Program-made: the position numbers and the translations under genes | Part shown: positions 14,431 through 19,661 of the stretch, in pieces | How positions within the stretch are numbered: the stretch's first letter is position 1 | Layout: each line of letters begins with the position of its first letter | The notes under the pieces: generated by a model | The model's input: the letters and a program-made list of their open reading frames with translations, nothing else | Told to the model about the DNA's origin: nothing | Database searches by the model: none | Source: a bacterium | GTDB taxonomy: Bacteria; Elusimicrobiota; Elusimicrobia; Elusimicrobiales; UBA9959 | Direction of reading: 5' to 3' | Assembly: GCA_021789695.1 (NCBI GenBank) | Contig: JAJYJH010000001.1 | Coordinates: 62,001 to 126,000 of the forward strand | Length of the DNA stretch: 64,000 nt

Positions 14431-14751
14431 ATGACGACGCAAGCCAAAACCAAGGAGCATGAGGCCGACCTGGAGCAGCTGATCTCGGATTACGGCCCAT
14501 CCAAGTACAACGACATCGTGCGCGCCATGCAGTGGGCACGCCACCTGCGCCGCCAGGAGGAGTCGCGCGGCCTGACGATGGCGGAACTCATCGACCGCGC
14601 CCTGCTGGACGTGGTGGGCAAGACGGTCACGGTCGAGGACATCGAAACGGCCATTAAGTCCGATATGGAGCTCGAAGAGAAACTCTCCGCGCGCCGCGGG
14701 GAGGAACCTAAGAAGCTCCGCAAAGAGGCCAAGGAAGAGAAGCCGGGCTGA
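14431..14751 (+). CDS. rpoZ: RNA polymerase omega subunit
   Basis: Omega helps assemble and stabilise the beta-prime subunit of RNA polymerase. The 106-residue protein has a central omega/Rpb6-like segment (KYNDIVRAMQWARHLRR, followed by LTMAELIDRALLDVVGK) and a charged, lysine-rich C-terminal tail. Position directly after gmk, by 25 bases with a GGAGG ribosome binding site, is the usual genomic context. The sequence is divergent from the enterobacterial form, so the call rests on length, pattern and context together. Confidence 0.85.
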   Translation: MTTQAKTKEHEADLEQLISDYGPSKYNDIVRAMQWARHLRRQEESRGLTMAELIDRALLDVVGKTVTVEDIETAIKSDMELEEKLSARRGEEPKKLRKEAKEEKPG

Positions 14752-14753
14752 GC

Positions 14754-15500
14754 GTGGCGATGAAGCGCGAGCTCGCCGCCGCGGCCAGGGACCTGGCCTC
14801 CTATATGCGGTCCATTGACGAGGACCTCGCCGAGGCTCCCCCGCGCCCGGCCGCGGCCGCGCCGGCCTGCGGCGAACGCCGGCCTGACGGCATGTCCGCG
14901 CTGGCCGGGCAGGTGCGGTCCTGCCGCAAATGCGGCCTGGGTTACGCCAGATTGAACGCGGTCTTCGGGGTAGGCAGCTACGAGGCGCGCATAGTCTTTG
15001 TCGGCGAGGGGCCTGGCTTCCAGGAGGACCACCAGGGCGAGCCTTTCGTTGGTCGTTCTGGCCAGCTGCTGGACAAGATAATGGACACGGTCCTGGGCCT
15101 TAAGCGCTCCGAAGTCTACATAGCCAATATAGTCAAGTGCCACCCGATGAAGAACCCGGAGACCCCGGAGGCGCACGGCAACGACCGGCCGCCCAGTCAG
15201 GAAGAGATCTCCGCCTGCCGCCCTTACCTCGACGAACAGTTGCGCTTCATAAGACCGGCCTGCATAGTGACCCTCGGGTCCGTCCCCACGAAAGTACTGC
15301 TGAACGCCGAAAAGGGAATTTCCCTGATGCGCGGGCGCTGGTACGATTATCCGGTGGACCTGTTCGGCCCGGGCCATCCGATAAAGGTAATGCCTACCTA
15401 TCACCCTGCCGCGCTGCTGCGAAACCCCAACCTAAAACGCGACACTTGGGAAGACATGAAGATGGTCAGGGCTTTCCTCGAAACTGGTAGAATGAGCTGA
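14754..15500 (+). CDS. Uracil-DNA glycosylase, family 4 (Fe-S)
   Basis: This enzyme removes uracil from DNA to begin base excision repair. The 248-residue protein has an Ala/Pro-rich N-terminal extension, then the family-4 motifs: the first iron-sulphur cysteines in CRKCGLGY, the motif GEGPGFQEDHQGEPFVG with SGQLLDKIM, a further cysteine pair (VKCHP and SACRPYL), and the catalytic-loop TYHPAALLRNP. The family carries a [4Fe-4S] cluster on four cysteines, all present here. It begins with GTG two bases after rpoZ and probably belongs to the same transcript. It ends 26 bases before priA. Confidence 0.93.
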   Translation: MAMKRELAAAARDLASYMRSIDEDLAEAPPRPAAAAPACGERRPDGMSALAGQVRSCRKCGLGYARLNAVFGVGSYEARIVFVGEGPGFQEDHQGEPFVGRSGQLLDKIMDTVLGLKRSEVYIANIVKCHPMKNPETPEAHGNDRPPSQEEISACRPYLDEQLRFIRPACIVTLGSVPTKVLLNAEKGISLMRGRWYDYPVDLFGPGHPIKVMPTYHPAALLRNPNLKRDTWEDMKMVRAFLETGRMS

Positions 15501-15526: not shown

Positions 15527-17512
15527 ATGCTGGCAGAGATATCTTTCCCTATACCGCTGCGGCGGACTTTCTATTACCTGCTTCCCGAGGAGCTGGAGCT
15601 CAGGGCCGCGCCCGGCCTGCGGGTCGTCGCCCCGCTTGGCAGGAGGACCGAAGCCATCGGCATGATGCTCCGGGTCCTGCCGGAGAAGGACGCGGACCTG
15701 ACGCGCTTCAAGGAGCTTAAGTCCGTCGCACGCCTGCTGGACGAGGATCCGCTTTTCCCGGAGGACGCTCCGGCGCTGGCCTCCTGGATGTCGGGGCGCT
15801 GGGGGTCTCCGGAAGGGCTGTGCCTCGGGGTCTTCTACTCCCACGGGCCGCGCGAACGTCCCCCCCAGCCGGCCGCTTCCGTTACGCTTCCCCCGCTCCC
15901 TCCCCCTTCGGAACTTCCCGAGCTCTCCCGTTTCTGCGGCGAGCTCCAGGGCCCCGGCGGCGGCGCTTATCTGCTGCGCCTGGCCCCGCTGGAACGCCGT
16001 GAGGCCGTCTATCCGCTGCTTTTTTCCTGCGCCCTGCGGCAGGAGGGCTCGCAGGGGCTGCTGCTGGTCCCGGACCTTAATTTTATACCTGCTCTTAAGA
16101 CGGCCCTCGAGCGCGTCTTTCCGGGCAGGGTGGGAGGCTGGCATTCCCGGCTGACTCCGGCGAAAAGAGCGGACGTCTGGGCCGGCGCTGTCTCCGGCAG
16201 GTTCAAGGTGATAATCGCCACGCGCACCGGCGTCTTTCTGCCTTTCCGCGAACTGCGCCTCGCCGTCATGGACGGAGAGCACGAGGAGGTGTATCGCCAG
16301 GCGGAGGCCGAGCCATTCTACCACGCCAGGGAGGTGCTGCTCAGGCGGGTCCGGGCGCTTGGGGCCAGGGCCGTGCTGGCCAGCCCCTGCCCCTCAATCG
16401 AATCCTGGGGAGCCGCCGCCTCGGGGGACCTGAAGCGCGTGGACGCGGTGCCGCAGGCCAGGCTGGCGGGGCCGGGCCCCGACGTGCGCGTGCTGGACAT
16501 GGAGAACTACCCAGGAGAGATACTGGCCAGGCCTCTTGCCGAAGCGCTGCGCCGCGCCGTGGAGAGCGGAGGGCAGGCCCTCGTGATAGCCGCCCGCAAG
16601 GGCTACGCCTCGCGCCTTTTCTGCGCGAACTGCGGCTGGATGCCGCGCTGCGGGAAATGCGGCCCAGGTTACGCCCTGCTGAAATCCCCCCAGTCGGCCC
16701 CGGTGCTGCTCTGCCGGCGCTGCGGCAGGAAAGAACCTTTGCCCATGGTCTGTCCCTCCTGCGGCGGAAAGGTGTTCCGCGACTACGGGACCGGGACGCA
16801 GAAGGCGCAGGAGGCCGTCCGGAAGCTGCTGCCGCCCGGCGTCAGGGTGGCGCGTTTCGACGGCGACGTCCTGCGCGGCTCGTTGAAAGCCATGCGCTCG
16901 GAACTGGATTCCTTCTCACGCGGCGAGGCGGACGTGCTGGTGGGGACGCGCATCGCGCTGCGCGACCTCGGGGCGCCGCGCCTTTCGCTGGCCGCCTTCA
17001 CAGACGCCGACGCCGACCTGTCCGGGGCTGATTTCAGGGCCTCGGAAAAGGCTTACCGCTCCTTTTACGGAGCCTGGCGCTTGTTGGGCGCCGGTGGAGA
17101 GCTCTTTATCCAGACCCGGGAGGCCGGGCATTACGTCTTCTCGCGCCTGACCGAGATGGATTACCCCTCCTTTGCCGACGGCGAACTCGCCGCGCGCAGG
17201 GATTTCTTCTACCCCCCTTTCTCTAACCTGATAAAGGCGAGGTTCGCCTCTTTCGACCGCGGCGCGCTGGATGCGGCCGCCTCGGACCTGCTGAAAGCGC
17301 TCTCTTTTCTCGGCGGCGGCGGCGCGGCCGGGGAGATACTGGGGCCCGTGACGCCGCAGGGACAGGAGAGGCGCAAGTTTCACAGCGAGTATTACCTGGT
17401 TAAAGCCGCCACCGAAGCCGACGCCGCGCTCTGCCTTAAGAAGGCGCTCTCGCTGCCTCCCCGCCCCGGAGTTAAATACTTCATAGAGGCGGACCCCTAC
17501 GGTTTCCAGTAG
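15527..17512 (+). CDS. priA: PriA-like replication restart protein with degraded helicase motifs
   Basis: PriA loads the replicative helicase at stalled forks. The 661-residue protein aligns by eye with the family: N-terminal DNA-binding domain (PLRRTFYYLLPEEL), helicase lobes, the zinc module with all eight cysteines (Cys366, 369, 375, 378, 396, 399, 409, 412), the GTGTQK motif and a C-terminal domain. The catalytic helicase motifs are missing. Where GVTGSGKTEVY is expected, residues 148-161 read YLLRLAPLERREAV. Motif II is DGEH (249-252) instead of DEEH, and motif VI (QVAGRAGR) is replaced by FYGAWRLLGAG. The frame is intact and codon use matches its neighbours, so it is probably a maintained non-ATPase protein rather than a pseudogene. 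Actinobacterial PriA proteins have also lost helicase motifs. Confidence 0.9.
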   Translation: MLAEISFPIPLRRTFYYLLPEELELRAAPGLRVVAPLGRRTEAIGMMLRVLPEKDADLTRFKELKSVARLLDEDPLFPEDAPALASWMSGRWGSPEGLCLGVFYSHGPRERPPQPAASVTLPPLPPPSELPELSRFCGELQGPGGGAYLLRLAPLERREAVYPLLFSCALRQEGSQGLLLVPDLNFIPALKTALERVFPGRVGGWHSRLTPAKRADVWAGAVSGRFKVIIATRTGVFLPFRELRLAVMDGEHEEVYRQAEAEPFYHAREVLLRRVRALGARAVLASPCPSIESWGAAASGDLKRVDAVPQARLAGPGPDVRVLDMENYPGEILARPLAEALRRAVESGGQALVIAARKGYASRLFCANCGWMPRCGKCGPGYALLKSPQSAPVLLCRRCGRKEPLPMVCPSCGGKVFRDYGTGTQKAQEAVRKLLPPGVRVARFDGDVLRGSLKAMRSELDSFSRGEADVLVGTRIALRDLGAPRLSLAAFTDADADLSGADFRASEKAYRSFYGAWRLLGAGGELFIQTREAGHYVFSRLTEMDYPSFADGELAARRDFFYPPFSNLIKARFASFDRGALDAAASDLLKALSFLGGGGAAGEILGPVTPQGQERRKFHSEYYLVKAATEADAALCLKKALSLPPRPGVKYFIEADPYGFQ

Positions 17513-18743: not shown

Positions 18744-19661
18744 ATGAAGATGGATCTTAAAATGCTGCTCGCTTTACTTCTGCTCTGCGCGCCCGCCGCG
18801 GCCCAGCAGGCGACAGAGGCGGACTATAAAATGATGCAGCAGATGATGAAGTCCGGGAACGATTATTCCCAGGGCCAGCCTCAGGCCTGGGACGCCCGTC
18901 TTAAGGTCGTTTCCGGCGATGTCGAAGTGAAGGCGGCCGATTCGTCCGACTGGCACAGGATAAAGGGCGAGCTGCCGCTGGAGCAAGGCGACGTGATAAA
19001 GACATCCGGAGACAGCGTCTCGGAGATGTATCTCGACGATAAGGGCGCGTTCTCCCTGGGCAGGAATACCGAACTGGGGCTCTCTTCGCTGGACCAGGAG
19101 AACTCCTCGATTTCACTCCGCCTGGGAACTATCGTCGCGAAAATAAAGCATTTCCTCGACGAGAAGCAGAGGTTCGAGGTGCGGACGCCCTCCGCGGTAT
19201 GCGCGGTACGAGGCACCGAGTTCGCCGTCGAATATTCCCAGCTGGACAAGGTGTCCTCGGTGGGGGTCTTCGACGAAGGCAGTGTCGCTGTCACCCCGCG
19301 GCTGGATTCGGGAAAGACCGGGGACGAGGTGACGCTGGACAAGAACAACGAGATCACGATAAACCCTGCGGAAAGGCGTTTTCACCAGGAACCGCTGTTC
19401 CGCATGGGCAGATTCCGCGGCACCATACTCCAGATGCGCAGGCGCCTGCTGGCGCTGAGGCGCTGGCGTCCGCGCTCGGCGGCCAAGAGAGCGCAGCTCC
19501 GCGAAGCCGCGCTGAAGCGTCTGGTCCGCGGACAGCTGCGCAAGCGTTCCTCGTCAAGGGTTTCCGGCGGCGGGACAAGGCGCAAGGCAAGGAGCCTGCG
19601 GCCTCGTTCCAGGCGGCGCCGGCCCGTCGCCGGCAAACGGCGGCGGCGGGAGGAGCGGTAA
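18744..19661 (+). CDS. FecR-domain secreted protein with polybasic tail
   Basis: The 305-residue product starts with a signal peptide (MKMDLKMLLALLLLCAPAAA), then a FecR-like domain (residues about 50-190) recognised by LEQGDVIKTSGDSVSEMYLD, a central LRLGTIVAKIKHFLDE and TPSAVCAVRGTEFAVEY. FecR domains of this exported type are common in surface or stress proteins without a sigma factor. The last 86 residues contain 36 Arg or Lys, with runs such as RRRRPVAGKRRRREER. This tail is likely to bind an anionic polymer such as peptidoglycan, teichoic-like material, LPS or nucleic acid, but that is inference. It starts 12 bases after tyrS. Confidence 0.8.
   Translation: MKMDLKMLLALLLLCAPAAAQQATEADYKMMQQMMKSGNDYSQGQPQAWDARLKVVSGDVEVKAADSSDWHRIKGELPLEQGDVIKTSGDSVSEMYLDDKGAFSLGRNTELGLSSLDQENSSISLRLGTIVAKIKHFLDEKQRFEVRTPSAVCAVRGTEFAVEYSQLDKVSSVGVFDEGSVAVTPRLDSGKTGDEVTLDKNNEITINPAERRFHQEPLFRMGRFRGTILQMRRRLLALRRWRPRSAAKRAQLREAALKRLVRGQLRKRSSSRVSGGGTRRKARSLRPRSRRRRPVAGKRRRREER

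What the first reader, a model, noticed from the sequence alone, without database searches (positions are those of the whole stretch)
15527..17512. PriA with loss of nearly all helicase motifs but intact zinc module
Walker A (residues 148-161), DEEH (now DGEH, 249-252) and the arginine-finger motif VI (about 511-523) are gone, while all eight zinc cysteines and the DNA-binding domain remain. A long intact frame with normal codon use suggests selection for a non-ATPase loader function. Actinobacterial PriA proteins are a precedent for such loss, so the same change may have occurred separately here.
Basis: partly seen in the sequence, partly recalled or inferred. Interest (0 to 1): 0.6.

Follow-up and report, generated by a model that had tools for sequence, protein, structure and literature searches.

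The report
PriA that lost its ATPase motor
In one order of the little-studied bacterial phylum Elusimicrobiota, the only PriA protein (which normally restarts broken-off DNA copying) has lost its ATP-driven motor but is still carefully preserved, so it very probably works only as a fork-recognising loading platform, as already shown for PriA of Deinococcus.

Summary
Window 15527-17512 (+) encodes a 661-aa PriA orthologue, the only one in its 95.7%-complete genome. The ATP-handling motifs are destroyed: Walker A GVTGSGKT to LAPLERRE, motif II DEEH to DGEH, motif VI GRxGR gone. DNA-contact motifs Ia and Ib, the aromatic-rich loop, all eight zinc cysteines, the 3'-DNA-binding domain and the C-terminal domain remain. 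It is not a decaying gene: omega is 0.12 against the nearest relative, and the frame is open in all 19 genus members examined. The loss is not private to this genome. Motif VI is absent from 54 of 54 PriAs of the order (families f1+f2), while all 15 PriAs from other families of the class keep motifs I, II and VI. Further losses occur elsewhere in Elusimicrobiota (f15; f17/18/19/23; two reduced f10 genomes): at least three, probably four, origins in one phylum. Intermediates keep Walker A and B but lack motif VI, suggesting motif VI went first. ATPase-dead PriA is already known in Deinococcus-Thermus, and actinobacterial PriA is divergent, so this is a new, repeatedly evolved member of a known kind. 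Function (DnaB reloading without unwinding) is inferred, not shown.

The parts
15527..17512 (+). priA, 661 aa, motor-less PriA
   Evidence: TIGR00595 286.6 bits over its 230.35 cut-off
15539..15829 (+). 3'-DNA-binding domain (residues 5-101)
   Evidence: Pfam PF17764 57.9 bits; dN/dS 0.08 in the closest pair
15968..16009 (+). former Walker A / motif I (residues 148-161), now YLLRLAPLERREAV, itself conserved in the genus
16220..16246 (+). motif Ib-like TRTGVFLPF (DNA contact), retained
   Evidence: alignment to E. coli PriA
16271..16282 (+). former motif II DEEH, now DGEH (residues 249-252)
   Evidence: DGEH or a close variant in the genus, one member has DEEH
16292..16333 (+). aromatic-rich loop YRQAEAEPFYHARE (residues 256-269), retained
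16622..16762 (+). cysteine-rich zinc module, all 8 Cys (residues 366-412)
16943..16978 (+). altered motif V, GTRIALRDLGAP (residues 473-484), near-invariant in genus
17057..17095 (+). position of motif VI (residues 511-523); QVAGRAGR replaced by RSFYGAWRLLGAG
17216..17497 (+). C-terminal domain (residues 564-657)
   Evidence: Pfam PF18074 E 0.002, below its cut-off; predicted fold and conservation
14754..15500 (+). family 4 uracil-DNA glycosylase, conserved upstream neighbour of priA
   Evidence: TIGR00758 186.9 bits; udg-priA adjacency

Best explanation
This is an ATPase-dead PriA (a pseudohelicase) that still acts as the replication-restart initiator. It recognises abandoned forks or D-loops with its 3'-DNA-binding domain, the DNA-contact faces of the two former motor lobes and the aromatic-rich loop, and uses the zinc module and lobe 2 as a platform to bring DnaB, probably with DciA, onto lagging-strand single-stranded DNA. 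It no longer unwinds the lagging strand, so either only forks with exposed single-stranded DNA are used or another helicase (RecG is encoded) prepares them. Shown here: motif loss, domain retention, purifying selection, order-wide distribution, a single gene, presence of DnaB and DciA. Inferred: absence of ATPase activity, fork binding, DnaB loading.
For: Motifs I, II (catalytic Glu) and VI absent. Only PriA in the genome. omega 0.12 overall in the closest pair; lobe 2 0.04, Zn 0.08, 3'BD 0.08, lobe 1 0.20. Zinc cysteines, aromatic-rich loop and DNA-contact motifs invariant or nearly so in 26 members. Lobe distances relative to the 3'BD are higher in every motor-less group than in every intact group (lobe1/3BD 1.04-1.71 against 0.67-1.00). 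Predicted lobes keep the RecA-like fold, with PriA structures as the best PDB matches. DnaB present, and DciA located by gyrB; no clear DnaC/DnaI-like loader seen. Precedents: D. radiodurans PriA lacks ATPase and unwinding yet binds forks and DnaB (PMC4504706); E. coli K230A PriA supports DnaB loading in vitro (PMC10175261).
Against: No biochemical or genetic data for any Elusimicrobiota PriA. PriB-type partners of E. coli were not looked for, so the hand-off to DnaB is unspecified. The aromatic-rich loop is described in E. coli as coupling DNA binding to ATP hydrolysis (title only seen), so its retention here needs another reason.
Confidence: 0.8

Rival explanations
1. The gene is decaying towards a pseudogene after restart became dispensable.
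For: ATP motifs erode in several lineages; the two f10 reduced genomes show omega 0.47, which looks like such decay.
Against: omega 0.12 in the window's own pair and about 0.10-0.29 across the genus pairs seen, no inside stops in any of the 31 genomes, all Zn cysteines and loop residues kept.
Confidence: 0.04
2. The protein still uses ATP through a rebuilt, non-canonical site in lobe 1 (the conserved LAPLERRE loop with D249/E251).
For: The replacement loop and D249/E251 are conserved within the genus.
Against: No glycine-rich loop, no P-loop lysine, no catalytic Glu, no motif VI arginines; K230R alone abolishes E. coli PriA ATPase (PMC4504706).
Confidence: 0.05
3. The protein has moved to another role, for example an architectural partner of the adjacent uracil-DNA glycosylase in repair, and no longer restarts replication.
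For: udg-priA adjacency is conserved widely in the phylum.
Against: The same adjacency is found with intact PriA, so it predates the loss; fork-binding and zinc modules are all retained; no other PriA exists in the genome.
Confidence: 0.08
4. The motor-less priA was acquired horizontally from a lineage with an already degenerate PriA (such as Actinobacteria).
For: Degenerate PriA exists elsewhere.
Against: PriA tree and RpoB tree both place the order beside families f7/f8 with strong support; gene neighbourhood is shared; PRK14873 models score far lower than ordinary PriA models.
Confidence: 0.02

Closest known systems
Deinococcus radiodurans PriA pseudohelicase (Lopper et al. 2015, PMC4504706)
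   Same: Walker A and B lost, other PriA domains retained, PriA kept in the genome
   Different: In Deinococcus-Thermus the P-loop lysine is changed to Arg in a still recognisable motif; here the whole P-loop and motif VI are gone, in an unrelated phylum
Actinobacterial PriA (PRK14873 type; 'smaller and very divergent', PMC1193525)
   Same: Divergent PriA; loss of helicase motifs there is from general knowledge, not tested here
   Different: Separate lineage; the window protein scores 115 bits or less against PRK14873 models and 318 against ordinary PriA models
Canonical E. coli / K. pneumoniae PriA (PDB 6dgd, 8fak)
   Same: Domain order, zinc module, 3'BD, aromatic-rich loop, fold
   Different: E. 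coli PriA has working motifs I-VI and ATP-driven 3'-5' unwinding

Membership tests
PriA (replication restart protein) | Sequence relationship to PriA above curated cut-off | tested here: met
   TIGR00595 286.6 bits vs 230.35
PriA (replication restart protein) | 3'-DNA-binding domain | tested here: met
   PF17764 57.9 bits vs 22.7
PriA (replication restart protein) | Eight-cysteine zinc module inserted in lobe 2 | tested here: met
PriA helicase (active enzyme) | SF2 helicase motifs I, II, VI intact | tested here: not met
PriA pseudohelicase (D. radiodurans type) | Loss of Walker A/B with retained PriA domains | tested here: met
PriA pseudohelicase (D. radiodurans type) | No ATPase, no unwinding, fork binding, DnaB binding in vitro | not testable with these tools
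   needs purified protein
Actinobacterial PriA (PRK14873) | Best match to PRK14873 models | tested here: not met
   115.5 bits or less, against 317.9 for PRK05580.1-4

The most novel reading that the evidence does not exclude
Within one phylum the PriA motor has been lost at least three times and step by step, motif VI (arginine fingers) first and then motifs II and I, while the former P-loop (LAPLERRE) and motif VI (FYGAWRLLG) regions became new conserved elements with a structural or partner-binding role. That would make Elusimicrobiota a natural series for how a helicase turns into a loading platform.
Probability: 0.4. Interest if true: 0.55.

Novelty: new member of a known kind. Interest (0 to 1): 0.42.

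Why it matters
PriA's helicase motifs are usually taken as broadly conserved, yet the motor was given up by a whole order, and repeatedly in its phylum, while the rest of the protein stayed under selection. This supports the view that recognising forks and loading DnaB is the indispensable job of PriA and that unwinding is optional. The graded series (Walker A/B kept with motif VI lost; Walker A kept with motif II altered; all lost) offers natural variants for testing which parts of the motor lobes serve loading rather than unwinding.

Tried and rejected
A hidden second PriA: not found. Pseudogene decay: rejected by dN/dS. Horizontal origin: rejected by trees and neighbourhood. The first motif VI pattern (Q..GR.GR) wrongly scored f11/f13 as lost because they have H for Q; the looser GRxGR count was used, so the count of 4 changes printed includes f11/f13 and is read here as 3. 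The motif II pattern is loose and accepts DE-containing variants such as DEGD, so only motifs I and VI are relied on for counts. In the PriA tree, f17 joins f1 through long branches and was flagged as unreliable; the RpoB tree puts f17 with f18/19/23. The structure model is weak in the 3'BD and linker (mean pLDDT 64.8; residues 1-119 below 50), so only the lobe folds are used. Literature on Elusimicrobia PriA: none found.

Full report
WHAT IS THERE. The frame 15527-17512 (+) encodes 661 aa. It passes the curated cut-off of the PriA family (TIGR00595, 286.6 bits against 230.35), has the 3'-DNA-binding domain (PF17764), and its sequence matches in the PDB are PriA chains only. Related contigs are named Elusimicrobia/Elusimicrobiota. 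Neighbours are guanylate kinase, a small frame in the position usual for rpoZ (no NCBIfam match), family 4 uracil-DNA glycosylase, priA and tyrS.

THE MOTIFS. Against E. coli PriA (alignment), motif I GVTGSGKTEVYL has become RLAPLERREAVYP; motif II DEEH has become DGEH (the catalytic Glu lost, D249 and E251 kept); motif III GSATP has become ASPCP; motif V is altered; motif VI QVAGRAGR is gone. Motif Ib (ATRTGVFLPF), the aromatic-rich loop (YRQAEAEPFYHARE) and the eight zinc cysteines are kept. So the ATP-handling part is lost and the DNA-handling part is kept.

ONE GENE, UNDER SELECTION. The genome (95.67% complete) holds one PriA; the weaker hits are Mfd, RecG and UvrB. All 31 genomes searched (the window's and 30 relatives) have a PriA without inside stops. 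Against the nearest relative (94% identical), dN is 0.032 and dS 0.262, omega 0.12; by domain 3'BD 0.08, lobe 1 0.20, Zn 0.08, lobe 2 0.04 and CTD 0.10 (Nei-Gojobori, small domains noisy). Two reduced f10 genomes with broken motifs show omega 0.47, which is how decay looks. In 26 genus members the loop, the cysteines and the replaced motif regions are largely invariant.

RELAXED LOBES. Protein distances with motif columns removed show lobe1/3BD of 1.04-1.71 in five motor-less groups and 0.67-1.00 in six intact groups; lobe2/3BD is 0.87-1.17 against 0.42-0.80. The groups are not all independent, so this is a consistent trend, not a formal test.

DISTRIBUTION. Of 55 PriAs of the order (families f1 and f2), none has motif VI (0 of 54 with that region); all 15 from other families of the class (f3-f9) have motifs I, II and VI. 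In the phylum, f15, f17, f18, f19, f23 and two f10 genomes are also motor-less, while f10 (others), f11-f14, f16 and f20-f22 are intact. On an RpoB tree the losses fall on three separate branches: f1+f2, f15, and f17/18/19/23 (read with the corrected motif VI pattern); the two f10 genomes add a fourth but lack RpoB in the data. The PriA tree agrees for the window's order: f1+f2 beside f7/f8 with SH-aLRT 98-99. The udg-priA adjacency is found with intact and motor-less PriA alike, so the loss happened in place in an inherited gene.

ORDER OF LOSS. f1 g8 (GPPKSGKTE, DEEQ, GRLSE), f2 g14 (GDAMTGKSE, DEEQ, GRLCG) and the f2 g3 members (GPAYTGKTE, DEGD-like) keep Walker A with no motif VI; g1 (the window) keeps neither. 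Motif VI was therefore probably lost first, in the ancestor of the order, and motif I eroded later and more than once. This is inference from the pattern.

PARTNERS. DnaB is present. A DciA-type protein passes its cut-off and lies between dnaN-like and gyrB-like frames (the two neighbours named by eye), and it occurs in 27 of 31 genomes. PF01695 hits are long frames, not obviously DnaC/DnaI (not examined further). RecG is present.

STRUCTURE. AlphaFold2 gives mean pLDDT 64.8; lobe 1 is mostly 75-92 and keeps strand 146-151, a short loop where the P-loop was, and helix 158-169. The nine best PDB matches are all PriA (E 3e-32 to 6e-24, TM 0.39-0.47), well above Mfd and UvrB. The 3'BD is not reliably modelled.

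MECHANISM. D. radiodurans PriA has no ATPase or unwinding but binds forks and DnaB (PMC4504706). An ATPase-dead E. coli PriA (K230A) supports DnaB loading in vitro, and fork binding moves the cysteine-rich region to expose a docking surface (PMC10175261). The window protein keeps the parts these steps need. The most likely reading is a fork-recognising loading platform without a motor.

NOVELTY. Motor-less PriA is known in Deinococcus-Thermus; actinobacterial PriA is noted as small and very divergent (PMC1193525). No paper linking PriA and Elusimicrobia was found in the library searched. What is new here is the order-wide and repeated loss in a further phylum and the graded intermediates.

Noticed in passing
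window 14754-15500 and many loci: A family 4 uracil-DNA glycosylase gene lies directly upstream of priA in most Elusimicrobiota loci examined, in both intact and motor-less lineages.
   Followed up: partly
L118, L119 (G148, G168; family f10): PriA of two very small genomes (0.4-0.5 Mb) has broken motifs I and VI and omega about 0.47, as if decaying.
   Followed up: partly
L084, L087 (f17) and L092 (f2 g13): PriA copies with only four of the eight zinc cysteines in the alignment, suggesting partial loss of the zinc module too.
   Followed up: no
window 18744-19661: A secreted-looking frame downstream of tyrS with weak similarity to LipL45-type lipoproteins and an arginine-rich C-terminal part.
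   Followed up: no
window 14431-14751: Small frame in the rpoZ position with no NCBIfam match.
   Followed up: no
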